The notes under the pieces are model-generated. The model was not told the DNA's origin. It did not search any database and saw only the letters and a list, made by a program, of their open reading frames with translations. Positions 1,165-13,224 of a stretch of DNA of 13,224 bases are shown in pieces. This DNA is from Gammaproteobacteria bacterium (GTDB lineage: Bacteria > Pseudomonadota > Gammaproteobacteria > DSM-16500): positions 1-13,224 of the forward strand of contig JABDEF010000031.1 of NCBI GenBank assembly GCA_013287235.1, given 5' to 3'. Positions within the stretch are counted from its first letter, which is position 1; each line of letters begins with the position of its first letter. Both the position numbers and the translations under genes were made by a program.

Positions 1165-1203
1165 TCCTTGTAAATTGGGAGTCTGTATCCCATTTTACAA
1201 GGA
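1165..1203. promoter_or_regulatory. Palindrome overlapping the ATPase promoter and RBS (possible operator or leader hairpin)
   Basis: TCCTTGTAAA (1165-1174) pairs perfectly with TTTACAAGGA (1194-1203). Inside it TGGGA (1176-1180) pairs with TCCCA (1188-1192), leaving one T/T mismatch and a 7-nt centre. On the minus strand this dyad covers a candidate -10 TAAAAT and the Shine-Dalgarno sequence of the ATPase gene. It could be the operator of an autoregulator or, if transcripts start further upstream, a hairpin hiding the ribosome binding site. The structure is seen directly; the role is inferred. Confidence 0.6.
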
Positions 1204-1324: not shown

Positions 1325-2206
1325 TTAGGGCCAGGGCAGGATATGACTATTTTGAATCAGCCGCTGCGGTGACAAATGGGGATGCTGCATTTTTTCAAGA
1401 TGAGGATAAAACGTTTGTTCTAACACATATCTTCCTCGAAGCGCTGCATGCGAGACAAGATCTGTAAAAACAATCCACGTACTGCCTGGCGGAAACGCAA
1501 TCGTTTCATCTTTCACGTTTTGCTGATATTGCATATCTTTTTTCATGCGATTGTGAATCTGTAACATACAGTGATCATACAAATCTCTTTTTTTACGCGT
1601 GAGGCCCATCACAGAAAGAAAACTTGCCTCAAAGGGCAGCATACGACGTACTTTAGGTAAAAATTGTTGAATCACTTCTTGAAAAGATTCCCCTAATCGC
1701 CACACGCGCGATTCCTGAAAAAGATTAATATTAGTAAAAACACGTAAAATACGTAAATCATTCACCGGCGTTGCAGGAAATGCATCGACATGCAAACGGG
1801 TATCATCTTTGCGATAGGAGGCGGGTTTTCGACCCATAATTTCGATCGGACGAAAACTGGTGCGACCGAATGAATGTGATGATTCATATGTCGGACATAA
1901 TTTTTCTAAAAGTGCGATAGTCCTATCATGATAACGTTTCATCATTTTCATGATCGTAATAATATGCTGATCTTTTTTATCTAATCCACCGAGACGATTT
2001 TTTTTGTGATCAAAACTGATATTTTTTGCGCGCTTAAGATCAAAAGATCTATTTAATAAAATATTTTCTTCATTTTCTAATAAAAAAGATAATTTCGGCA
2101 AATAAATGACTTTTCCTTCTTCCAAAGCAAGCATCGCCTTTTTTGCAAGATTATTTTCAACATTTGGCTTCCAAACATCTATGTTTAATTCGAGTAAATG
2201 GTTCAT
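1325..2206 (-). CDS. kdoO: Kdo hydroxylase (Fe(II)/2-oxoglutarate dioxygenase)
   Basis: 293 residues that read as a full-length member of the Kdo hydroxylase family, non-haem Fe(II)/2-oxoglutarate enzymes that hydroxylate Kdo to Ko in the lipopolysaccharide inner core of Burkholderia and Yersinia. The iron-binding HxD is visible at H139-D141 in TRLHVDAFPATP. The distal histidine is probably H253 in VSHAALRGRY, with R257 or R259 available for 2-oxoglutarate. There is no signal peptide or membrane segment, so it should act on lipid A-Kdo precursors at the cytoplasmic side. The ATG overlaps the stop of the upstream permease gene as ATGA (2203-2206), with AGGA 8 nt upstream of it; this is translational coupling as the last gene of the efflux operon. 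The family call rests on remembered family sequence and these motifs, and I am fairly confident. Confidence 0.85.
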   Translation of the reverse strand: MNHLLELNIDVWKPNVENNLAKKAMLALEEGKVIYLPKLSFLLENEENILLNRSFDLKRAKNISFDHKKNRLGGLDKKDQHIITIMKMMKRYHDRTIALLEKLCPTYESSHSFGRTSFRPIEIMGRKPASYRKDDTRLHVDAFPATPVNDLRILRVFTNINLFQESRVWRLGESFQEVIQQFLPKVRRMLPFEASFLSVMGLTRKKRDLYDHCMLQIHNRMKKDMQYQQNVKDETIAFPPGSTWIVFTDLVSHAALRGRYVLEQTFYPHLEKMQHPHLSPQRLIQNSHILPWP

Positions 2207-5200
2207 GGATTCATTCCTGCCTCCTTCCGAAGTAAATCAAGTGCATCCTTTTTCTTTTTATGATCTTCCGCAAGAAACATATACATCGTAGGTACGACAA
2301 ATAAAGTAAAAAGTGTCCCAATGCTTAAACCGGAGGCAATCACCATTCCAATATTAAATCGACTGACCGCTCCCGCACCTGACGCAATAATGAGTGGTAC
2401 CACCCCAAATACCATGGCAGCCGTTGTCATGAGAATAGGACGCAAACGAATACTTGCGGCATCGATAATGGCTTCACGTTTATTTTTCCCAGTTAATTGT
2501 AAATCATTCGCAAATTGAACGATCAAAATACCGTGTTTGCTGATCAAACCAATCAAAGTCACCAACCCCACTTCCGTATAAATATTTAAACTTAAACCGC
2601 CAATCCCTAAACTAATAAAAATCATCGCCCCACAAATCGACATCGGAACGCTGATTAATACAATCACAGGATCTCGAAAACTTTCAAATAATGCTGCAAG
2701 CGATAGGAAAATAACAATCAATGCAAAAAAGAATGTGACAATCATGCCACCGCTTTCTTGTATAAATTGACGCGAGGGTCCCGCATAATCAATGCCATAT
2801 CCTTCTGGTAGTACTAGAGCTGCCATTTGTTTCAATGCATTCAATGCATCTCCATCGGTAATACCCGGCGCTGCAACGGCAGAAAAGGTGGCCGAATTCA
2901 CTTGTTGAAAATGATTCAGGGATTCAGGAACAATTTTTGTTTTTAACTTCGCAATCGTACTTAATTGAATAGTATTCCCCGCGAGCGTATTAATATAATA
3001 ATGTAAAGTATCGGATGCGTTATATCGATCAATTCGATTCATCTGCGGAATCACTTCGTATGAACGCCCGCCATAATTAAAATAATTAATATAACCTTGG
3101 CTTAAAGCAGCCCCTAAATCATTCGCGACATCATTCATGGTCAAGCCAAATTCTGCCGTTTTATCGCGATCGAGTAAAATGTTCGTTTGTGCTTTATCAA
3201 TTTTTAAATCAGTATCCGTAAAAATAAAAAGACCACTGCTTCGTGCTTTTTCTAAAAACGCTTGATTCACTTCATTCAAACGATCAAAAGAATCTGTGGT
3301 CGTTAACACAAATTGAATGGGAACACCGCGCGCACCAGGCAAAGGCGGCAATTGAAATGCCGCAATGATTGCGCCTGTAATACCACCCAATTTTTTTTGC
3401 ACTAAGGGTTGTAATTGGTTAGAAGTACGTTTGCGTTTATCCCAGGGTTTCAATCCCATACCAATAATAGCTGTATTCAAACCGCTGATACCATTCAGTT
3501 GAAACATGCGTTCAGTTTCTGGGAAAGATTCAAAAACTTTTAAAACTGCATCCGAATATATCATTGTTTGTCCCAATGTTGCATTGGGCGCTGTTGTCGC
3601 TTGCGCGATAATAATACCTTGATCTTCCATAGGCGCAAGTTCTCTTTTAGACGTTGAATACAGAAAATAAATACTCACCAAAATAATCGCGGCAAAAACG
3701 GCGGTCACGGGTAAATAATTTAAAACATTGTGCAATACTTTTTTATATTTTTCTTTGAGACGCTCAAATTGTCTATCGATAAATGCCACAAATCCGCCTT
3801 CTTTGCTTTCCGTATGTTTTAATAATTTAGAACTCATCATCGGTGACAAGGTTAAGGCAATGATGGCAGAAATGGTGACAGCACCTGCTAACGTAAACGC
3901 AAATTCTGTAAATAAAGCACCTGTCAATCCACCTAAAAATCCAATCGGGACATACACCGCAATCAAAACAATCGTGATTGCGATAATGGGATTTGCGAGT
4001 TCTCGTGCACCCTGAATGCCTGCTTTAATAGGTGAATCACCCGCTTCAATATGTCTTTGCACATTTTCAACAACAATAATTGCATCATCCACAACTAACC
4101 CTATCGCGAGCACTAACGAAAGTAGCGTCAATAAATTGACGGAATATCCCAGTATAAACATTACAAAAAAAGCCCCAATCAATGATAAAGGGATAGTAAC
4201 TAAGGGAATGGATACGGATCGAATAGAGCCTAAAAATAAAAAAATGACGAGCGCAACAATCGCGAGCGCCTCCGAGAGAGAGACGATCACTTCACGAATG
4301 GAACTATTCACGAAATCGGTTGAGTCATACACAATTTTTGCATTTAATCCAACGGGTAATTGCGCTTGAATATCGGGGAAGATTTTTTTTACATCATTAA
4401 TCACGGTTAACAAGTTTGCATCCGGTGTTGTCAAAATGCCAATATAAACCGCCTTTAAATTATTAAAACTAACCGATGTGTCATAACCCGTTGCACCCAA
4501 TGAAACGTCCGCGACATCTCGGAGACGAATGATGGCACCATTTTGTGCTTTAATCACCATGTTTTTAAATTCTTCGACTGAGGTAAGATTTGTATTTGCC
4601 GCCAAATTCACCGTAAACATGTTACCATCTGTTCGCCCAGCCGCTGAAATAATGTCATTATTGGCAAGGGCAATCGAAATATCATTCGGCGATAAACCAA
4701 ATCCTGCTAATTTTTGAGGATTCAGCCACGCACGCATCGCAATGGGTTTATCACCTTTCAACTCTGCAGTTTCGACTCCTGGGATCGCTTGCAATTTTGG
4801 CTGCACCACACGTGTTAGATAATCGGTGATTTGATTCGGTTTCAGTACACTGCTATAAAACCCTAGATACATTGCATCGATCGTTTGACCAATTTGAATA
4901 TCTATCACAGGCAATTGTGAATTTTTCGGTAATTGATTAAGAACCGCATTGACCTTCGTATTGATATCTGCAAGTGCTTTTTCAGGATCATAATTTAAAC
5001 GTAAATTGACCGTGATCGAACTAATACCTTGTATGCTCGTCGATGTCATATAATCTATGCCATTCGCACGCGCAATGGATTGTTCCAAAGGTGTTGTGAT
5101 AAATCCAGCGACAACATCAGGATCTGCACCAAAATAATAAGTCGTGACAGTGATAATGGCGTTTTGCGTATAGGGATATTGACGAACCGGCATCAATCCC

Positions 5201-5286
5201 AAAGAGCGGAGTCCTAATACTAAAATAATGAGACTCACAACGGTTGCGAGTACGGGACGTTCGACAAAAATATCTGTAAAGCGCAT
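2203..5286 (-). CDS. RND multidrug efflux permease (HAE-1 family)
   Basis: Inner-membrane proton/drug antiporter of the AcrB/MexB type, about 1027 residues, a full family length. It begins MRFTDIFVERPVL, the usual family start, and shows the two halves of the fold: TM1, a large periplasmic loop, TM2-6, TM7, a second loop, TM8-12. The proton-relay acidic pair lies in GLVVDDAIIVVEN (about residues 396-408) and its basic partner in LISKHGILIVQF; an arginine in IRLRPILM corresponds to the other conserved TM11 charge. The frame is open to an ATG at 5307 that overlaps the adaptor gene, but family alignment favours the ATG at 5286, 7 nt after the adaptor stop. Neither start has a strong Shine-Dalgarno sequence, so translation may depend on coupling. 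It works with the adaptor encoded upstream and needs a TolC-like channel not encoded here. Substrates cannot be predicted. Confidence 0.95.
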   Translation of the reverse strand: MRFTDIFVERPVLATVVSLIILVLGLRSLGLMPVRQYPYTQNAIITVTTYYFGADPDVVAGFITTPLEQSIARANGIDYMTSTSIQGISSITVNLRLNYDPEKALADINTKVNAVLNQLPKNSQLPVIDIQIGQTIDAMYLGFYSSVLKPNQITDYLTRVVQPKLQAIPGVETAELKGDKPIAMRAWLNPQKLAGFGLSPNDISIALANNDIISAAGRTDGNMFTVNLAANTNLTSVEEFKNMVIKAQNGAIIRLRDVADVSLGATGYDTSVSFNNLKAVYIGILTTPDANLLTVINDVKKIFPDIQAQLPVGLNAKIVYDSTDFVNSSIREVIVSLSEALAIVALVIFLFLGSIRSVSIPLVTIPLSLIGAFFVMFILGYSVNLLTLLSLVLAIGLVVDDAIIVVENVQRHIEAGDSPIKAGIQGARELANPIIAITIVLIAVYVPIGFLGGLTGALFTEFAFTLAGAVTISAIIALTLSPMMSSKLLKHTESKEGGFVAFIDRQFERLKEKYKKVLHNVLNYLPVTAVFAAIILVSIYFLYSTSKRELAPMEDQGIIIAQATTAPNATLGQTMIYSDAVLKVFESFPETERMFQLNGISGLNTAIIGMGLKPWDKRKRTSNQLQPLVQKKLGGITGAIIAAFQLPPLPGARGVPIQFVLTTTDSFDRLNEVNQAFLEKARSSGLFIFTDTDLKIDKAQTNILLDRDKTAEFGLTMNDVANDLGAALSQGYINYFNYGGRSYEVIPQMNRIDRYNASDTLHYYINTLAGNTIQLSTIAKLKTKIVPESLNHFQQVNSATFSAVAAPGITDGDALNALKQMAALVLPEGYGIDYAGPSRQFIQESGGMIVTFFFALIVIFLSLAALFESFRDPVIVLISVPMSICGAMIFISLGIGGLSLNIYTEVGLVTLIGLISKHGILIVQFANDLQLTGKNKREAIIDAASIRLRPILMTTAAMVFGVVPLIIASGAGAVSRFNIGMVIASGLSIGTLFTLFVVPTMYMFLAEDHKKKKDALDLLRKEAGMNP

Positions 5287-5293
5287 AGTGTGT

Positions 5294-6427
5294 TTACCAA
5301 TGATCATTCAACGCAATCGGATGCGGATTATTTTCAGGCACGAGAGAATTATTGATTGAGACGCGCGAACCTTTTTTCAATTTCAACTGTCCACTGGTGA
5401 CAATCATATCTCCTTCTTTAATGCCTTTTAAAATTGCAATTTGATCACCACGCGTTTCACCGGTGATCACAAACGCGGGCGTTGCAGTTAAAATAGGGCC
5501 TTTTTCATCTTTCCCTTCATTTTTAACAATATAAACAATATCACCGTATGGATTAAATGCGACCGCTGTTTGTGGCAAGGTCAAATATTTTTTAGGATTC
5601 CCCGTCACAACCGTAACTGTCCCAAACATTCCTGGTGCCAAATCCAGTTGTTTATTTTGAAGCGTTGCCTCGACCAACACATTACGCGTTCCCGTTTCAA
5701 CCTGTGGATTTATTGTCGTAATTTTTCCAAAAAATGATTTATGGGGATAAGCATCTGTCGTCAATTTTGTCGATAAACCTATTTTTAATACAGAGAGTGA
5801 TTGTTGCGGCATGTAAAAATCTACATAAATAGGATCCAGCGTTTGCAGGGAGGTGACGCTATCTCCTGTATTTAAATATTGACCGGGATTTACATTATTT
5901 ATACCCAAACGACCGGTGAAAGGTGCACGTAGAGTTTTCTTTGCAACAGTTGCCGCCTGTTGCTTTACTTGTCCTATGAGGTTTTGTAAATTTTCAAAAT
6001 CCGTATCGAGTTGTTGTTTACTCACTGCGCGAATAGCATATTGTTTTTTATCACGATCAAGGGTAATTTTTGCAAGGGCTGCTTGCGCTTCTAAAGATTG
6101 TAATTGACCAATCTCGGTCCCTGCATTCAATTGTACGAGTATCCTCCCTTCTTTGACATAAGATCCCGGAATAAAATAAATCGTTTGGACCATCCCTGCT
6201 AATTCTGTTGTCACATTAACCCCTTTGATCGCGCGTAAGCTTCCACTTGCGCTTAATTGAGACGGCCATTCACTAAATTCAACTTTCATGGCTGAGACAG
6301 GGATAATAGGATTTTTATTTTCTGCAATGGATTTTTTAATCAAGACGCCGATCATGGCTTTGAAAAGAAAAATGAGGCCAAAGAGAATAAAAAGGCAAAA
6401 CAACATGATAAACATCCGTTTTCGCAT
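5294..6427 (-). CDS. RND efflux periplasmic adaptor (membrane fusion protein)
   Basis: 377-residue HlyD/AcrA-type adaptor that bridges the permease and an outer-membrane channel. An N-terminal hydrophobic segment (about residues 5-30) without a convincing lipobox suggests a signal anchor in the inner membrane. Then come a lipoyl half-motif (GMVQTIYFIPGSYVKEG, about 78-94), a short helical hairpin (about 105-165), the second lipoyl half (LRAPFTGRLGI), a beta-barrel, and the membrane-proximal domain ending in EGDMIVTSGQLKLKKGSRV. I start at the ATG at 6427 because GGAG (6434-6437) lies 6 nt upstream. The frame extends to 6511, but those extra 28 codons are read from a palindromic repeat. It is first in an operon with the permease and the Kdo hydroxylase genes. 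Family and role are secure. Confidence 0.93.
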   Translation of the reverse strand: MRKRMFIMLFCLFILFGLIFLFKAMIGVLIKKSIAENKNPIIPVSAMKVEFSEWPSQLSASGSLRAIKGVNVTTELAGMVQTIYFIPGSYVKEGRILVQLNAGTEIGQLQSLEAQAALAKITLDRDKKQYAIRAVSKQQLDTDFENLQNLIGQVKQQAATVAKKTLRAPFTGRLGINNVNPGQYLNTGDSVTSLQTLDPIYVDFYMPQQSLSVLKIGLSTKLTTDAYPHKSFFGKITTINPQVETGTRNVLVEATLQNKQLDLAPGMFGTVTVVTGNPKKYLTLPQTAVAFNPYGDIVYIVKNEGKDEKGPILTATPAFVITGETRGDQIAILKGIKEGDMIVTSGQLKLKKGSRVSINNSLVPENNPHPIALNDHW

Positions 6428-6449
6428 TAAAAACTCCGTTTTTTTATAG

Positions 6450-6501
6450 AATTCCAGATAGGTCTTTTGGTAAAAAGCAACCAAAAGACCTATCTGGAAT
6501 T
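6450..6501. repeat. Palindromic 50-bp repeat, copy 1 (leader of the efflux operon)
   Basis: A perfect 22-bp inverted repeat: arms 6450-6471 and 6480-6501 with an 8-nt centre (AAAAAGCA). The arm core is CCAGATAGGTCTTTTGGT. The reverse complement of 6451-6500 matches copy 2 (6664-6713) at 45 of 50 positions. It lies 12 nt upstream of the Shine-Dalgarno sequence of the adaptor gene, so a transcript begun upstream would carry a very stable hairpin directly before the ribosome binding site. Confidence 0.9.
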
Positions 6502-6519
6502 TAATTCTCAAGTTCTTCT

Positions 6520-6541
6520 ATGTTTCATGTTCAAGAAACAT
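6520..6541. promoter_or_regulatory. Small dyad, possible repressor operator upstream of the efflux operon
   Basis: ATGTTTC (6520-6526) and GAAACAT (6535-6541) form a perfect 7-bp dyad with an 8-nt spacer. Its size and place upstream of an RND operon fit a TetR-type operator, but no regulator gene is present and AT-rich DNA gives such dyads by chance. The structure is real; the role is speculative. Confidence 0.3.
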
Positions 6542-6571
6542 TAGAAAATGATATTATGTTATTATTTGGCT

Positions 6572-6599
6572 TTTATAAGCAATAGATATTTTTTTACAA
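6572..6599 (-). promoter_or_regulatory. Candidate promoter of the efflux/Kdo hydroxylase operon
   Basis: On the minus strand TTGTAA (6594-6599) and TATAAA (6572-6577) are 16 nt apart. They match the sigma-70 hexamers at 4 and 5 of 6 positions. Transcription from here would include the dyad at 6520-6541 and palindrome copy 1 in a leader of roughly 140 nt. The AT-rich setting makes this tentative. Confidence 0.3.
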
Positions 6600-6663
6600 A
6601 AAAGTAAGAAATAATAATACATCATTTTTTAACATTTTTGGATTTTATTTTTATACTATTAGA

Positions 6664-6713
6664 ATTTCAGATAAGTCTTTTGGTCGCTTTTTACCAAAAG
6701 ACTTATCTGAAAT
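6664..6713. repeat. Palindromic 50-bp repeat, copy 2
   Basis: A perfect 21-bp inverted repeat: arms 6664-6684 and 6693-6713 with an 8-nt centre (CGCTTTTT). The arm core is TCAGATAAGTCTTTTGGT. It is inverted relative to copy 1. The five differences are two compensatory arm pairs and one centre base, so both copies stay perfect palindromes. It lies 26 nt past the dehydrogenase stop and may terminate or protect that transcript, though no U-tract follows it on the minus strand. Confidence 0.9.
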
Positions 6714-6719
6714 GCTATA

Positions 6720-6753
6720 TTTGGTGCTTTTTACTAAATTATTTATCTGAAAT
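6720..6753. repeat. Decayed half copy of the palindromic repeat, overlapping the end of the dehydrogenase gene
   Basis: The stretch TTTGGT-GCTTTTTAC followed by TTATCTGAAAT matches the second half of copy 2 in the same orientation. After a one-base gap near the start, 24 of 28 positions agree. The stop codon and last four codons of the dehydrogenase gene (Ile-Ser-Asp-Lys) lie within it. The pairing arm has largely decayed, leaving only a weak stem near the centre. Confidence 0.65.
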
Positions 6754-9700
6754 TTTATCGTACAATTCGCGGAGTACAATAAAAAACATGGAATAATCAA
6801 TGTTGGGATTCCCTAAAATCATCTCAACCATTTTTTCCCAGCGAGCAACTGGCCGAGGATGATTACTGATCCAATCATCAATCAATTTCGTGACATTGTC
6901 TTCTTTTTTATTACTTTGCAGGATAATAATCGTTAATAATTTTTGCAGCACATCCAATTCATCACGCAATGTCAAACGTGCAAGGTTATACCAATGACCT
7001 TCACGCGCATCCATTGCAATATGATCTCTGAACCACACAAAATTAAATCTTGTTCCTATGTCATAATACATTTTTGCTGTTTTAAACATCTCAAACTTAT
7101 ACTGAGATGCAACATCAATGACATTTAACAAAATATAAAGCGCGCGATACGTTGCAATACGCTTTGCGGCTTCTTTTGGAATGCCTGCATGTATAAATTG
7201 ATCAGTCAGTGTTTTCAAATATGCTTTCGTATTACCGCTCACCAAGTCTGGAACAATGGGTTCTAACTTTTTAATAGGAACATAAAAATATTTTATCGTC
7301 TGCTCAATATCGAAGGTATCATATTTAGGGTTTCGCAAAAACCAGCGTGTCGAAAGATTAATAAGATGACGTGTATGATGTAATAAATCATATTGTAATT
7401 TTGCAGACACTTTAAAATTAAAAGATTCAATCAAATGCTCCATCGCTTCGGATTCGAAAATTTTTGATGAAATCACATAAGCGCGAATGACTTCTGACAC
7501 CGTTGCACCAATTTCATCCTGGACACGATAAACAAATGTTACGCCCATTTCATTCACAATTTTATTAGATAATTGTGTCGCAATAATTTCTCGATACAAA
7601 CGATGCGTACGCATGAGTGATTGAAAGTTTTTTTGATGTAATGTTTTTGGAAACTCAGACTCGAGTTCTCGAATAAAAAATGCATCTTCAGGAATATCGG
7701 ATTTTAAAATTTCATTTTTTACATGAATTTTGCTATAAGCCAAAAGAATTGCAATTTCCGGAGATGTTAAACCTTGATTTGCCGCTTTTCTTTCAAGAAT
7801 GGTTTTTGCATCCGGTAAAAATTCGAGGGCACGATCAATGTCATTCGACGCTTCCAGCATTTTAATAAAATTTTCGTAAAGCCCCGTATTTGTCATCGAT
7901 CGTTCTCTTGAAAGACTTAAGGTCAGGGCTTGATCGTAATTATCACGTAACACTAACTCTGCGACTTCATCCTTCATTTTAGATAATAACGCATTACGCT
8001 CATGATTCGTTATTCTTTTAAGTGACTCCGCTTTATCTAATAAAATTTTAATATTCACCTCATGATCCGAGCAATCCACCCCTCCTGAATTATCGATAAA
8101 ATCCGTATTGATAAGTCCGCCTAAAAGAGCGAATTCCACTCGAGCAAGCTGAGTAAATCCTAAATTGCCGCCCTCACCCACCACTTTCACTCGTAATTCA
8201 TTCGCATTGATACGACAAAAATCATTGGCTTTATCCAACACATCATCATTTTTTTCATCACTTCCTTTTACAAAGGTACCGATGCCGCCATTATAAAGTA
8301 AATCACAAGGTGCTTTTAAAATCGCTACAATGAATTCGTCAGGTGAAAGCGATGTTTTATCGATTTTTAAAACATTTCGTATCTCAGGCGTGACGGAAAT
8401 AGATTTTGTGAAGCGGCTAAAAACACCGCCTCCTTTTGAAATCAACCCTCGATTGTAATCTTGCCACGAGGAATTTTTGCTTTGAAATAACCGTTTTCTT
8501 TCTCGATAAGATTTTTGTGGATCGGGATCCGGATCAATAAAAATATCTTGACCATTAAAAGCCGCAATCAATTTGATGTTTTTCGAATAAAGCATTCCAT
8601 TTCCGAAAACATCTCCACCCATATCACCAATGCCAATCACCGTAAACTCATCTTGATCAATGTTGATGTCACATTCACGGAAATGACGGCGTATTGATTC
8701 GAATGCGCCTCTCGCGGTAATTCCCAGCGCTTTATGATTGTAACCGGTTATCCCACCGGAGGCAAAAGCGTCTCCCAGCCAAAAATCATATTCTTTCGCG
8801 ATGCTATTCGCAATATCTGAAAATGCACCCGTACCCTTATCCGCGGCTACCACAAGATATGGATCAAAATCATCCATACAAAAAACATGTGAGGGATGAA
8901 TCATTTCACCTTTTTGAATATTATCAGTCAAATCGAGTAACCCACGAATAAATAATTTATAACAATTTACCGCTTCATTTTCAGAAAAACGATTTTTCTT
9001 TAAAACGAATCCTCCTTTCGCACCACCCGGAACAATAACGGCATTTTTTACACGTTGCGCTTTCATCAATCCTAAAATTTCGGTACGTAGATCTTCACGT
9101 CTATCGGACCAACGTATCCCACCTCGAGAAACCTTACTGCTTCGCAAATGAATGCCTTCAAATCTTGCGGAATAGACAAAAATTTCATACAAGGGACATG
9201 GCTTGGGTAAATCTGGAATTGCTTTCGAATAAAATTTTAATGCCAGATAATCCTTATGGTTATTATGATTTTTTTGAAAATAATTCGTGCGCACGGTTGC
9301 TAGCATTAAATAATAAAATTGACGCATAATACGATCTTCCGCCAATATTTCAATACCATCTAATTCTTCTAAAATTTTATTGTCCAATTTTTTTAATAAA
9401 TTTTTATATTTTTTTTTCAAGCTAAATCGCGCTTTAAAAAATTTTACTAAATTTTTACTGAGCTCCGGATGATTAGAAACCGTTTCTTCAATATAAGAAA
9501 GACTAAAACGAAAACCGGCTTGACCTAAATATTTTGCATAGGCACGTAATATCGTAATTTCACGATAAGAGAGCATCGCACCTAAAACCAATTTATTCAT
9601 TGCATCATTTTCAGACCTCCCCAAACAAATTTGCAGAAATGCTTCTTTAAAAAGTGGCTTGATTTTTTTGATATCCCACGTTTTTTGCATAACGGGAATC

Positions 9701-10077
9701 ACTGCAAAATCACTGATCCAACCCTGCGTTTTTTTAAGAGAGACTTCATAGGGGTGTTCGCTCAGTGTGCGTAATCCTAAATTTTCTAATATGGGTAAAA
9801 TATCTGATAGAGGAATGGGTTTACTATATTGATACAATCGTAAATGCAGCGCTATCTCCCGCTCTTCTTTGATTTCATAAAGATGAATAGAAAATGATTT
9901 TTTTTGTGAAAGATTTTCAAAGCGAATAATATCTCGGAGCGCCATTTGTACGGTGCATTCTTCTGCATAACTCGTCAGGAACGCCTTACTGTATTTAACG
10001 AAAAGGGCTTGGCCTTTGTGAACACCAAATTTTTTGATTAAACGCGCTTCGAGTTCATCTCGCCAAGCATTATCCAT
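6739..10077 (-). CDS. NAD-specific glutamate dehydrogenase, large bacterial family, lacking the N-terminal regulatory region
   Basis: Oxidatively deaminates glutamate to 2-oxoglutarate and ammonia with NAD; cytoplasmic. From the ATG at 10077 it has 1112 residues, whereas bacterial members of this family usually have about 1600. It begins (MDNAWRDELEARL) where full-length relatives are several hundred residues in, so the N-terminal ACT-like regulatory part is absent. The catalytic region is intact: GGIRWSDRREDLR (about 319-331), VPGGAKGGF with the catalytic lysine (about 349-357), MDDFDPY (about 401-407) and the NAD-binding GIGDMGGDVFGNG (about 482-494). The C-terminal helical region is full length. 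I chose this start for AAGGA (10086-10090) 8 nt upstream. An ATG at 10179 adds 34 codons but lacks a Shine-Dalgarno sequence and is preceded in frame by TAA seven codons earlier; its VEVIFV could be leftover ancestral sequence. It looks monocistronic and functional, since a long frame with all motifs survives. Confidence 0.88.
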   Translation of the reverse strand: MDNAWRDELEARLIKKFGVHKGQALFVKYSKAFLTSYAEECTVQMALRDIIRFENLSQKKSFSIHLYEIKEEREIALHLRLYQYSKPIPLSDILPILENLGLRTLSEHPYEVSLKKTQGWISDFAVIPVMQKTWDIKKIKPLFKEAFLQICLGRSENDAMNKLVLGAMLSYREITILRAYAKYLGQAGFRFSLSYIEETVSNHPELSKNLVKFFKARFSLKKKYKNLLKKLDNKILEELDGIEILAEDRIMRQFYYLMLATVRTNYFQKNHNNHKDYLALKFYSKAIPDLPKPCPLYEIFVYSARFEGIHLRSSKVSRGGIRWSDRREDLRTEILGLMKAQRVKNAVIVPGGAKGGFVLKKNRFSENEAVNCYKLFIRGLLDLTDNIQKGEMIHPSHVFCMDDFDPYLVVAADKGTGAFSDIANSIAKEYDFWLGDAFASGGITGYNHKALGITARGAFESIRRHFRECDINIDQDEFTVIGIGDMGGDVFGNGMLYSKNIKLIAAFNGQDIFIDPDPDPQKSYRERKRLFQSKNSSWQDYNRGLISKGGGVFSRFTKSISVTPEIRNVLKIDKTSLSPDEFIVAILKAPCDLLYNGGIGTFVKGSDEKNDDVLDKANDFCRINANELRVKVVGEGGNLGFTQLARVEFALLGGLINTDFIDNSGGVDCSDHEVNIKILLDKAESLKRITNHERNALLSKMKDEVAELVLRDNYDQALTLSLSRERSMTNTGLYENFIKMLEASNDIDRALEFLPDAKTILERKAANQGLTSPEIAILLAYSKIHVKNEILKSDIPEDAFFIRELESEFPKTLHQKNFQSLMRTHRLYREIIATQLSNKIVNEMGVTFVYRVQDEIGATVSEVIRAYVISSKIFESEAMEHLIESFNFKVSAKLQYDLLHHTRHLINLSTRWFLRNPKYDTFDIEQTIKYFYVPIKKLEPIVPDLVSGNTKAYLKTLTDQFIHAGIPKEAAKRIATYRALYILLNVIDVASQYKFEMFKTAKMYYDIGTRFNFVWFRDHIAMDAREGHWYNLARLTLRDELDVLQKLLTIIILQSNKKEDNVTKLIDDWISNHPRPVARWEKMVEMILGNPNIDYSMFFIVLRELYDKISDK

Positions 10078-10113
10078 GTGATCAATCCTTTTAATGTTGT
10101 CATTGCCATCCAC

Positions 10114-10119
10114 ATTATA
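10114..10119 (-). promoter_or_regulatory. Candidate -10 element of the dehydrogenase gene
   Basis: A perfect TATAAT on the minus strand lies 36 nt upstream of the ATG at 10077, which would give a leader of about 30 nt carrying AAGGA. No good -35 hexamer lies 16-18 nt upstream. The site falls inside the 34-codon extension from 10179, which mildly supports the shorter start. Tentative. Confidence 0.3.
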
Positions 10120-10313
10120 TTTCCATCGAAATGCTTTGATTGGGACAAAAATAACTTCAACTTTCTTTAAGTTTAACATTGCAAATAATTTCTGTGCTTA
10201 AATTTTATAATTCATACCAAAAGTTCTTATGAGTATTATTTTAATTATCAATAACCTACACAAAGACACGGGGGGTTTTTGAGGAATATGTTTTTACATG
10301 ATCACAAAAAGTA

Positions 10314-10930: not shown

Positions 10931-13177
10931 ATGCAGTCGCACAACCTAGAAAATACTTTTGCTCCTTTGCCTTATCAAAAAACTTATGAAAAACATGTCA
11001 TTGCGCTCGCAAATCAATTAAAAGAAGATGCAAAAAAAGTTATTGATTCATATGATTTAGCTGCGAGAGAAAATAATACGTTAGCATTATACAATCTTGG
11101 AGTAATTTATACAGAAAGCATTGAAGTAAACAAAGATTTCGAAAAAGCCGTGCGTTTGTATCGCAAGGCTGCTGATCAAGGCTATGCTCCAGCACAAAAT
11201 AGTCTTGGGTGCATGTATTGGAACGGCTTTGGGGTAGAAAAAGATTACAAAGAAGCCATACGTTTTTATCTCAAGGCTTCCGATCAAGGCCATGCTGAGA
11301 CACAAAATCATCTTGGAAACATGTATAGGCTCGGCTTTGTGATAGAAAAAGATTACAAAGAAGCCGTGCGTTTTTATCGTAAGGCTTCCGATCAAGGCAG
11401 TGCAATAGCACAATATAATCTTGGGTACATGTATAAGAACGGCTTAGGGGTAGAAAAAGATTACAAAGAAGCCATGTGTTTATATCGCAAAGCTTCCGAT
11501 CAAGGCCTTGCAACAGCACAAAATAATCTTGGGTGCATGTATCGGAACGGCTTAGGGGTAGAAAAAGATTATAAAGAAGCCGTGCGTTTTTATCGCAAGG
11601 CTTCCGATCAAAACAATGCATCAGGACAAGATAATCTTGGGTACATGTATGAGAACGGCTTAGGGGTAGAAAAAGATTACAAAGAAGCCATGTGTTTATA
11701 TCGCAAAGCTTCCGATCAAGGCCTTGCAACAGCACAAAATAATCTTGGGCGCATGTATCGGGACGGCTTAGGGGTAACAAAAGATTACAAAGAAGCCATG
11801 TGTTTATATCGCAAAGCTTCCGATCAAGGCCTTGCAACAGCACAAAATATTCTTGGGTGCATGTATCGGGACGGCTTAGGGGTAACACAAAATTACAAAG
11901 AAGCCATGCATTTTTATCGCAAGGCTTCCGATCAAGGCTATGCATCAGGACAAAATAATCTTGGGTGCATGTATCGGGACGGCTTAGGGGTAACACAAAA
12001 TTACAAAGAAGTCATGCATTTTTATTGCAAGGCTTCCGATCAAGGCTATGCATCAGGACAAAATAATCTTGGGTGCATGTATCGGGACGGCTTAGGGGTA
12101 ACAAAAGATTACAAAAAAGCCATGTGTTTATTTCGCCTGGCTGCAAATCAAGGCTTGGCAGATGCAGAAAGGAATCTAGAATTAATAGCACAACTAGAGC
12201 AACGAAAGCTCGCATCCACTATCGCACTTTTTGAAAAAGAACGGTTAGAACAAAAACTACAGCCAAATATCGCACAAACTAACAAAGGCGATACAGTGGA
12301 CACATTAGAGCAAAAGAAAAAAAACTATACTGATAGTATTCAAATCTACTTAAGTTATAAACCCACGATAATGGATGTAAAATACCCAACTTCATCTACA
12401 GCAATAGACCTAAAAAATCAAATCGAAAAGTATGAAAACATTTTAGACGATTGGGCTAAAAAAAGTTCATTGGTATTGAAGACCACTAAAAACGAAATGA
12501 ATAATGACAAGAAAAAAATTGTCGAAACACTTGCTGCATTCGCCAAACAATACAAAGCGGCTAAAAAGAAAAAAAGCATAACGGGGAAGCAAATAAATGA
12601 ACTTATCTCTAATGAGGCAGAAATGCGTGAATCGCATGAGCAGGCATTAAAAGAATTAAACGATGCGCAAGAAGCTTATAAAAGTTATGAAAACGAGCAA
12701 ATAAAAAACATTAAAGAAAAAGAAGATAAAGAACAAAAACCAAGAGAAGAGTTATCTGCAAAATGGCAAAATCTCAAAGATACATTCCAAGAAGAATACA
12801 AAACTTACAATAAAAATATCAATCACCTCATCACATTGTATGAAGCCAGATGTCATTTAAACCCATCCAGTAAAAAGAATCCGCCTCAGGGGATAGTAAC
12901 ATATGTGTTAAGCTATCGAGTGGATGATAAGAAACATCCTTATAATCTCTTCCAAGAAAAAGCACAGATGAAGGATGATGCTCCGATATTGGATAATAAT
13001 ATTAAAAAAATGGAAGAATACAATGAGATCCTGCGTAAGGCAAATAATACTATTAATACCAGCATTAATTTTACCAAGGACAATTTGGTTACGTTGGAAC
13101 AAAGAGAACAGGTTAATAAAAAATCTGAAAAAAAAGAAGTAAAAATTAATCCTCATTATCGCGGGTTTATAACTTAA
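10931..13177 (+). CDS. Sel1-repeat protein with a charged coiled-coil-like C-terminal half (candidate secreted effector)
   Basis: 748 residues. Sel1 repeats are helical hairpins related to tetratricopeptide repeats that usually bind other proteins. After a hydrophilic N-terminus of about 55 residues without a signal peptide come ten contiguous 36-residue units (about 56-415), each of the form LGxMYxxGLGVxKDYKEAxxxYxKASDQGxAxAQNN. Units 4-10 are nearly identical to each other, while unit 1 is the most diverged. From about residue 416 the protein is rich in lysine and glutamate with long helical stretches and no domain I recognise, ending EKKEVKINPHYRGFIT. Sel1 proteins such as LpnE and EnhC act in Legionella-host interaction, and a glutamate-rich tail with late hydrophobic residues is compatible with a Dot/Icm signal; both are analogies, not proof. 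It is the only intact plus-strand gene and stands beside a Sel1 remnant. A cytoplasmic scaffold is an alternative. Confidence 0.88.
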   Translation: MQSHNLENTFAPLPYQKTYEKHVIALANQLKEDAKKVIDSYDLAARENNTLALYNLGVIYTESIEVNKDFEKAVRLYRKAADQGYAPAQNSLGCMYWNGFGVEKDYKEAIRFYLKASDQGHAETQNHLGNMYRLGFVIEKDYKEAVRFYRKASDQGSAIAQYNLGYMYKNGLGVEKDYKEAMCLYRKASDQGLATAQNNLGCMYRNGLGVEKDYKEAVRFYRKASDQNNASGQDNLGYMYENGLGVEKDYKEAMCLYRKASDQGLATAQNNLGRMYRDGLGVTKDYKEAMCLYRKASDQGLATAQNILGCMYRDGLGVTQNYKEAMHFYRKASDQGYASGQNNLGCMYRDGLGVTQNYKEVMHFYCKASDQGYASGQNNLGCMYRDGLGVTKDYKKAMCLFRLAANQGLADAERNLELIAQLEQRKLASTIALFEKERLEQKLQPNIAQTNKGDTVDTLEQKKKNYTDSIQIYLSYKPTIMDVKYPTSSTAIDLKNQIEKYENILDDWAKKSSLVLKTTKNEMNNDKKKIVETLAAFAKQYKAAKKKKSITGKQINELISNEAEMRESHEQALKELNDAQEAYKSYENEQIKNIKEKEDKEQKPREELSAKWQNLKDTFQEEYKTYNKNINHLITLYEARCHLNPSSKKNPPQGIVTYVLSYRVDDKKHPYNLFQEKAQMKDDAPILDNNIKKMEEYNEILRKANNTINTSINFTKDNLVTLEQREQVNKKSEKKEVKINPHYRGFIT
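11096..12175 (+). repeat. Ten tandem 108-bp units encoding Sel1 repeats
   Basis: Ten in-frame 108-bp units, each starting at the Leu-Gly codons. Similarity at DNA level is highest from about 11413 to 12120: the run ending CTTGCAACAGCACAAAATAA recurs in units 4 and 6 and, with one base changed near its end, in unit 7, and units 8 and 9 differ by only a few bases. This points to recent unit duplication by slippage or recombination, so copy number may vary between strains. Confidence 0.9.
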
Positions 13178-13189
13178 GTAGATTTGAAT

Positions 13190-13210
13190 ACTATCAGTAT
13201 AGTTTTTTTT
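13190..13210 (+). terminator. Probable weak rho-independent terminator after the Sel1 gene
   Basis: Thirteen bases after the TAA stop, ACTAT (13190-13194) pairs with ATAGT (13199-13203) around the loop CAGT, followed by a run of eight T (13203-13210). The stem is short and AT-rich, but its place and the T-run fit a terminator. Confidence 0.5.
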
Positions 13211-13224
13211 CTTTTGCTCTAATG

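What the first reader, a model, noticed from the sequence alone, without database searches (positions are those of the whole stretch)
6450..6713. Two inverted copies of a 50-bp palindrome that differ only by compensatory changes
6451-6500 (reverse complement) and 6664-6713 match at 45 of 50 positions. Four of the five differences form two base pairs (C-G to T-A, and G-C to A-T at symmetric arm positions); the fifth is in the 8-nt centre. Both copies therefore remain perfect palindromes of at least 21 bp although the sequence has diverged. This suggests selection for the fold (RNA hairpin, cruciform, or a transposase/RAYT substrate), or arm-to-arm correction during replication. The copies enclose 163 bp of AT-rich DNA, so the whole 263 bp might be a small non-autonomous element.
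Basis: partly seen in the sequence, partly recalled or inferred. Interest (0 to 1): 0.72.

Follow-up and report, generated by a model that had tools for sequence, protein, structure and literature searches.

The report
Hairpin DNA repeats near gene starts
The two mirror-image DNA palindromes belong to a family of short hairpin repeats also found in relatives of the bacterium Aquicella; their stems change sequence but stay paired, and many copies sit just in front of genes.

Summary
In detail: 45 of 50 positions match, four of the five differences form two compensated pairs, and both copies stay perfect palindromes. The window's own genome is not held. In the order of Aquicella siphonis the same element occurs at 13 places in one genome (G393) and 1 in another (G399), of 36 searched. 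Fifteen aligned copies share a base TTTCAG/CTGAAA and a tip TTTTGG–T-rich loop–CCAAAA; the 7-bp middle varies but stays paired: 40 doubly changed cells against 10.7 in shuffles and at most 8 when slid. Mismatches show no G·U excess (5 G·T, 6 A·C, 22 other), so pairing seems to be kept at DNA level. 9 of 12 G393 places lie next to a gene start, against 1 of 13 of two other palindrome families there. In the window, copy 1 lies 22 nt before an RND-pump adaptor gene. No transposase, target duplication or empty site was found. Best reading: a lineage-restricted family of non-autonomous hairpin repeats, comparable to REPINs and Correia elements but a member of neither. Mobility and any effect on genes are inferred.

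The parts
6450..6501 (-). Palindrome copy 1: 22-bp perfect arms, 8-nt loop (6472-6479); T-loop on the - strand, pointing at the RND adaptor gene
   Evidence: family model score 80.8 bits (it is one of the model's own training rows)
6660..6717 (+). Palindrome copy 2: 21-bp perfect arms (25 with one mismatch), 8-nt loop (6685-6692); T-loop on the + strand
   Evidence: 82.6 bits (also a training row)
6720..6758 (+). Decayed half copy (loop and right arm), overlapping the last codons of gdh
   Evidence: (D6)
6445..6449 (+). Outer end motif TATAG next to copy 1
   Evidence: sequence; similar CTCTATA-like flanks in G393 copies
6715..6719 (+). Outer end motif CTATA next to copy 2 (reverse complement of TATAG)
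   Evidence: sequence
6502..6659 (.). AT-rich spacer between the copies; no counterpart found
   Evidence: its best matches in 36 genomes are short AT-rich stretches (41-43 nt, E 2.4e-5 and 3.4e-5)
5294..6427 (-). RND efflux membrane-fusion (adaptor) protein; start codon 22 nt from copy 1
   Evidence: Pfam HlyD_D23, HlyD_3; start read by eye
2203..5307 (-). RND transporter (AcrB family)
6739..10179 (-). NAD-glutamate dehydrogenase, short form; its 3' end abuts the repeats

Best explanation
The two palindromes are copies of a lineage-restricted family of short (about 46-60 bp) hairpin repeats, of the broad kind of non-autonomous palindromic elements. Shown: a multi-copy family in a related genome; a nearly invariant stem base (TTTCAG/CTGAAA), a nearly invariant tip with a T-rich loop, and a middle stem that changes but stays complementary; a bias to sites just upstream of start codons. 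Inferred: copies were spread as DNA hairpins by a transposase not identified here; arms are kept alike by arm-to-arm template switching during replication while base and loop are held by recognition of the hairpin; many copies were kept at gene starts because the hairpin, as extruded DNA or as mRNA leader, affects the next gene. In the window copy 1 would act on the RND pump operon; copy 2, inverted and at the 3' end of gdh, is its partner in an inverted doublet.
For: Family: 13 places in G393 (E 3.0e-16 to 0.0135) and 1 in G399 (6.5e-14) of 36 genomes; 12 of the 13 listed again in 1.35 Mb of G393 (the second C38 copy overlaps the first by one base and was not listed). Covariation, 15 copies: 90.6% of 298 cells paired (shuffled 76.6 +/- 1.3), 13 of 20 pairs with double change, 40 doubly changed cells (shuffled 10.7 +/- 2.6; slid at most 8), score 0.393 against 0.132; the weakest measure, further pair types, is 23 against 18.0 (6 of 500 shuffles reach it). 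Among the 7 copies with at least 19 Watson-Crick pairs, 21 non-independent comparisons give 92 compensated, 10 one-sided and 8 otherwise changed pairs. DNA level: of 33 non-Watson-Crick cells 5 are G·T, 6 A·C, 22 other. Gene starts: 9 of 12 G393 places against 1 of 13 for two other palindrome families of the same genome (one-sided Fisher 0.0009); by flank orientation, read by eye, 9 of 13 copies point at a start within 60 nt (10 with one inside a signal-peptide region), null 15.6%. Longer elements with similar ends in G383, G380, G403, G404.
Against: No transposase with matching ends was found, no clear target duplication, no empty site. The window's genome is not held, so its copy number is unknown. 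Only G393 has many copies: of 369 class genomes, G393 among them, 3 matched at E up to 0.01 and the other two are weak (only 14 candidates scored per genome); 1 weak match in 143 genomes of the Legionella order (37 candidates scored). A selfishly spread family would not obviously prefer gene starts; the sampled copies of G393's other palindromes do not. 5 of the 12 G393 places are also within 60 nt of a gene end, as are 5 of the 13 controls.
Confidence: 0.6

Rival explanations
1. Cis-regulatory hairpin, not mobile: a DNA cruciform or mRNA-leader hairpin with a T/U-rich loop, inherited and selected at gene starts as a set of co-regulated genes.
For: 9 of 12 G393 places near starts; sense orientation in 9 of 13 by flanks; downstream genes are often envelope or division genes: MurC, MreB, OmpA-like, MscS, TauE, DUF2807, a ZapB-like match below Pfam's cut-off and the window's RND adaptor.
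Against: Both orientations inside one intergenic region (window c1/c2); c2 and G393 C38b point at 3' ends of genes, C21 lies between converging genes; no G·U excess; one copy lies inside an N-terminal coding region (C4b); no convincing copy in the other 34 genomes of the order at R1's sensitivity.
Confidence: 0.25
2. Mutation only: any palindrome is made and kept perfect by template switching; there is no selection on the fold.
For: Perfect arms and few one-sided changes in the best copies; two copies (C38a, C7) have the loop inverted relative to their flanks by my reading, as a switch can do; the mechanism is documented (PMC8794818, abstract and start of the introduction read).
Against: Does not explain why base and tip stay nearly invariant across copies and genomes (columns 12-14, 24, 32, 33, 35, 41 and 56 at 2 bits), nor the position bias.
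Confidence: 0.12
3. The whole 6445-6719 block is one miniature transposon whose 57-bp terminal repeats are themselves palindromic.
For: 57-nt, 89% inverted arms with outer TATAG/CTATA; G393 C38 shows a doublet with similar outer ends.
Against: The spacer has no counterpart; C38's spacer is about 15 bp, not 163, and its two loops point the same way; 11 of 13 G393 places are single.
Confidence: 0.2
4. Bidirectional transcription terminators.
For: Two terminator-like calls against 0.1 expected.
Against: Both calls are on the + strand; the neighbouring genes are on the - strand; relatives of the element sit at gene starts.
Confidence: 0.03

Closest known systems
REPINs / REP sequences with RAYT (PMC3116915 and PMC8266576, passages read)
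   Same: Short palindromes, intergenic, inverted doublets, conserved ends with a middle in which compensatory changes are common (so stated for REPINs in PMC3116915)
   Different: No GTAG consensus, no Y1 transposase found in G399 or G404; single perfect stems up to 27 bp with a T-rich loop; gene-start bias
Correia elements / NEMIS / CREE of Neisseria (PMC2649163, PMC2229807, passages read)
   Same: TATAG ends, hairpin, many copies 5' of genes, including one in front of an RND pump operon (mtrCDE)
   Different: Not the GGATTAA that follows TATAG in their ends; most commonly 104-108 or 153-157 bp versus about 46-60 bp; here compensated changes and no clear target duplication
RUP of pneumococcus (PMC2229807, passages read)
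   Same: Small non-autonomous repeat with TA-type termini
   Different: RUP is tied to an IS630 transposase; none (DDE_3) found in G393, G399, G404
Coxiella QMITE1 / QMITE2 (PMC5896051, abstract and two results sections read)
   Same: Palindromic repeats in a related gammaproteobacterium; QMITE2 contains a REP
   Different: 300-400 and 150-190 bp, with direct repeats; QMITE2 mainly in 3' untranslated and intergenic regions
Template-switch-maintained hairpins (PMC8794818, abstract and start of the introduction read)
   Same: Explains paired changes without wobble intermediates
   Different: A mutation process described in RNA genes, not a repeat family

Membership tests
REP/REPIN | Conserved 5' tetranucleotide (GTAG or similar) at the hairpin | tested here: not met
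   A3 columns 5-8 carry at most 0.71 bits each and no GTAG consensus
REP/REPIN | RAYT (Y1 transposase) in the same genome | tested here: not met
   PF01797 in 20 of 36 genomes but not in G399 or G404; G393's single copy is next to a TnpB-like reading frame (IS605-like, my reading), and the flank parts printed lack the motif
REP/REPIN | Inverted doublets | tested here: inconclusive
   Window pair; G393 C38 by flanks only; the other 11 G393 places are single
Correia/CREE | Ends TATAG[CT]GGATTAA | tested here: not met
   Ends here are TATAG-N3-TTCAG at best
Correia/CREE | Target duplication | tested here: not met
   Longest abutting repeat 6 nt; at least 4 nt in 6 of 15 copies, at least 5 in 3, at least 6 in 1, against 41%, 11% and 2% of random places; a 2-nt TA duplication cannot be excluded
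Correia/CREE | Frequent position 5' of genes | tested here: met
RUP / IS630-type MITE | IS630 transposase with the same terminal repeats | tested here: not met
   DDE_3 in 9 of 36 genomes, not in G393, G399 or G404; of 12 DDE_3 loci 10 were examined: three one-mismatch end motifs, none with an inverted partner
Rickettsia palindromic elements | In-frame insertions in genes (recalled) | tested here: not met
   1 of 12 G393 places lies inside a reading frame
Coxiella QMITE1/2 | Element size 150-400 bp with direct repeats | tested here: not met
   46-60 bp hairpins, no clear direct repeats
Known RNA family | Rfam match above gathering score | tested here: not met
   0 matches; 38 matches below threshold in a lax search, none reaching its family's cut-off
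Intrinsic terminator | Hairpin and T tract on the strand of the upstream gene | tested here: not met
   Terminator-like calls only on the + strand, genes on the - strand
Any mobile element | Empty sites in close relatives | not testable with these tools

The most novel reading that the evidence does not exclude
A DNA-level hairpin regulator: an unknown protein recognises the extruded hairpin by its TTTCAG/CTGAAA base and T-rich loop, whatever the stem sequence, and controls a set of mainly envelope and division genes; the stem evolves by arm-to-arm copying, so the element keeps its shape while its sequence drifts.
Probability: 0.13. Interest if true: 0.8.

Novelty: new member of a known kind. 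Interest (0 to 1): 0.5.

Why it matters
It gives a natural set of 15 aligned palindromes with near-invariant base and loop and a drifting but paired stem, which allows a test of whether selection or template switching keeps hairpins perfect. If the gene-start bias reflects function, it is a case of a small repeat family distributed in front of envelope genes, comparable to Correia elements in Neisseria but with a different structure.

Tried and rejected
Intrinsic terminators: terminator-like calls are on the strand without neighbouring genes. Known RNA family: none. RAYT/REPIN: no GTAG consensus, Y1 transposase not found in two carriers. IS630-type MITE: no DDE_3 in G393, G399, G404; 10 of 12 DDE_3 loci examined, no inverted pair of end motifs. 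Autonomous element in G393 by its end motif: none seen by eye among 50 motif hits with up to 2 mismatches (1.35 of about 1.5 Mb). Strict end pattern TATAGCRYTTCAG in 36 genomes: 12 hits in 8 genomes against 4 for the reversed control; some belong to long hairpin elements, others look like chance. Viral contigs: 0 core hits, 0 hits of the family pattern; the end pattern hit two contigs, apparently the same site, inside a phage reading frame, chance; no relative of the adaptor protein. Plasmids: for the window block 8 short chance-level matches, for three related elements none. The single core hit in the species-genome collection lies in a Campylobacteraceae contig, in what I read as coding sequence, without the arms: chance. 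R2 hits in G224 and G246 (stretches read), and R1 hits in G394, G385, G386, G154, G396, G381 with E 0.004-0.8, are weak; I treated them as chance or unproven and did not align them. Also left out of the 15-row alignment: the weak G393 copy C2:93974-94036 (E 0.0135) and all longer elements. The first target-duplication control gave implausible values for long repeats, probably from runs of N, and was repeated without N. Literature searches, judged by titles and starts of abstracts, listed nothing that describes this family; that covers only the held open-access library.

Full report
Check of the observation. The two 50-mers were compared letter by letter. They match at 45 of 50 positions; four of the five differences are two symmetric, compensated pairs and the fifth is in the loop. 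Both arms are perfect, 22 and 21 bp. The inverted similarity extends to 57 nt on each side (6445-6501 and 6663-6719, 89%), and outside the hairpins the outer ends read TATAG and CTATA. A third, decayed half copy lies at 6720-6758. As single-stranded DNA the region folds into the two separate hairpins (-59.3 kcal/mol against -20.0 +/- 2.95 in shuffles); as RNA of the gene strand the two copies pair with each other (-96.6 against -43.6 +/- 3.8).

Where it lies. The neighbours are, on the - strand, NAD-glutamate dehydrogenase (6739-10179), then the repeats, then an RND adaptor (5294-6427), an AcrB-type transporter and a Kdo hydroxylase. The nearest proteins to the GDH are unnamed (93%, 68%, 61%); named ones below them are Gammaproteobacteria MAGs, Legionella and Aquicella siphonis (best 120 listed). 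No genome of the window is held. I reached relatives through a class sample (134 of 369 genomes with a match, best 60%) and then searched the whole held order of the best hit, 36 genomes. That order contains a genome whose contig length equals that of the Aquicella siphonis record (2,411,764 bases); this is how I name it. A second order of 143 genomes contains a contig whose length equals that of the Legionella norrlandica record (28,785).

Finding the family. A DNA comparison of 6440-6760 with the 36 genomes gave a match over copy 2 in G399 (7.9e-8), two in G393 (7.6e-4, 0.0185) and several right-arm matches in G404 (four at 0.005-0.019 and one at 0.22); AT-rich matches to the spacer reach 2.4e-5, so E-values alone do not separate these, the hairpins do. 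Six hairpins aligned without reference to structure gave 93.3% paired cells and 9 of 20 pairs with changes on both sides. A covariance model (R1) then found 13 places in G393 and 1 in G399; of the other 34 genomes 7 had hits at E 0.0014-0.8 that I do not count, one of which, in G383, is a 100-bp element with TATAGCACTTCAG ends. A scan of 1.35 Mb of G393 listed 12 of the 13 places. A second model (R2, 15 copies) matched 3 of 369 class genomes at E up to 0.01, G393 and two weak ones (only 14 candidates per genome scored), and 1 of 143 genomes of the Legionella order (E 0.003), a longer hairpin with a TATAGCCTCAG end. The exact core occurs once in the species-genome collection, by chance. The family therefore looks restricted to this lineage, within the sensitivity of these searches.

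What is conserved. In 15 copies the base TTTCAG/CTGAAA and the tip TTTTGG-loop-CCAAAA with a T-rich loop are nearly invariant, while columns 15, 19 and 21 and their partners vary through three to four pair types. Pairing is far above the controls: 90.6% of cells against 76.6 +/- 1.3 shuffled and at most 45.0 slid; 40 doubly changed cells against 10.7 +/- 2.6 and at most 8; score 0.393 against 0.132 +/- 0.020 and at most 0.083; further pair types 23 against 18.0 +/- 2.0, reached by 6 of 500 shuffles. The pair C38a/C1 in G393 repeats the window's observation: two compensated pairs and nothing else in the stem. Cautions: copies in G393 may be related by duplication, and rows found with a structure model are favoured if paired. 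Decayed copies were kept in the count: C7 (14 Watson-Crick pairs of 20), C9 and C6 (15), C21 and C10 (16), C4b and G399 (17).

DNA or RNA. If the RNA fold were what is kept, G·U pairs should exceed A·C. They do not: 5 against 6, among 33 non-Watson-Crick cells. The number is small, so this is a lean, not a proof. Correction of one arm by the other during replication (template switching, PMC8794818) can give such changes, but does not by itself keep base and loop constant; recognition of these parts by something is the simplest addition. REPINs show a similar combination of conserved ends and compensated middle (PMC3116915).

Position. Around each copy I called reading frames (starts are the first possible codon, so distances are approximate) and identified neighbours: TauE, MurC, OmpA-like, DUF2807, MscS, GatC/MreB, an acetyltransferase after UvrA, a dCTP-deaminase-like gene, an amidohydrolase after PyrI, and a ZapB-like match below the cut-off; the G399 neighbour has no Pfam match. 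In G393, 9 of 12 places (the C38 pair counted once, the weak C2 copy included) lie within 60 nt of a start codon, against 1 of 13 places of two other palindrome families in the same genome (one-sided Fisher 0.0009). The controls are the copies with an exact core (8 and 5), not all members of those families. By the CTCTATA-like flank, read by eye, 13 copies can be oriented (C1 and C17 cannot) and 9 point at a start within 60 nt, where random intergenic placements give 15.6% (P 2.2e-5 for 9, 1.6e-6 for 10); the two window copies and G399 are in that 13 although the null is from G393. Copies against the trend: window c2, C38b, C21, and C4b, which lies inside a reading frame. In two copies (C9, C38a) a ribosome-binding-site-like stretch follows the TATA directly, so there the TATA can hardly be the -10 box of that gene and the hairpin would lie in the transcript.

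Related longer elements. G404 has elements of about 150 bp with ends TATAG-N-TTCTCAG. G383 has a 100-bp element with two TATAGCACTTCAG ends; G380 and G403 have longer hairpins with one TATAGCATTTCAG end and a CTGAG or CTGAAATT end, each a few bases before a start codon by my reading. They suggest a wider set of hairpins sharing ends but not interiors. The strict end pattern occurs 12 times against 4 for the reversed pattern, so this link is suggestive only.

Rearrangement. In four of five relatives examined (G154, G399, G397, G391) gdh and the adaptor-RND block face each other tail to tail; the fifth, G389, has only a distant RND (30%) in another arrangement. In the window the block follows gdh head to tail, so the repeats sit at the junction of an inverted block. 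One case; cause not shown.

Conclusion. A lineage-restricted family of small hairpin repeats with family-wide compensatory evolution and a gene-start bias. Spread by transposition, arm correction by template switching and an effect on downstream genes are inferences. Correia elements are the closest functional parallel (TATAG ends, 5' of genes, one in front of mtrCDE; PMC2649163), but their defining end sequence is not met.

Noticed in passing
window 12303-12373 and 13154-13224: 71-nt, 99% inverted repeat with one arm at the very end of the window: looks like a fold-back contig end (assembly or amplification artefact); the last codons of the Sel1 protein run into it.
   Followed up: partly
window 10931-13177: Sel1-repeat protein with nine 108-nt repeats (10 Sel1 matches), a type often found in intracellular bacteria (the last remark is recalled).
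   Followed up: no
window 1165-1203: Another hairpin (16-bp arms, 7-nt loop) near the junction of the Kdo hydroxylase and AAA/DUF4143 genes; not of this family.
   Followed up: no
window 5294-10179: Adaptor-RND block inverted relative to gdh compared with four of five relatives; the palindrome pair lies at the junction.
   Followed up: partly
G393, e.g. L144 675-765, L153 2536-2664: Two other palindrome families in the same genome (cores CTGAGCGCAGCGAAGGATC and CCTCCACG); 1 of 13 sampled copies lies near a gene start.
   Followed up: partly
L095-L099 (G404), L210 (G380), L216 (G403), L218 (G383): Longer hairpin elements with similar ends (TATAG-N3-TTCAG type, or TATAG-N-TTCTCAG in G404) and unrelated interiors.
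   Followed up: partly
G154 order and Legionella order: Many genomes carry two NAD-glutamate dehydrogenases, a short one (about 1,125 aa, like the window's) and a long one (about 1,620 aa).
   Followed up: no
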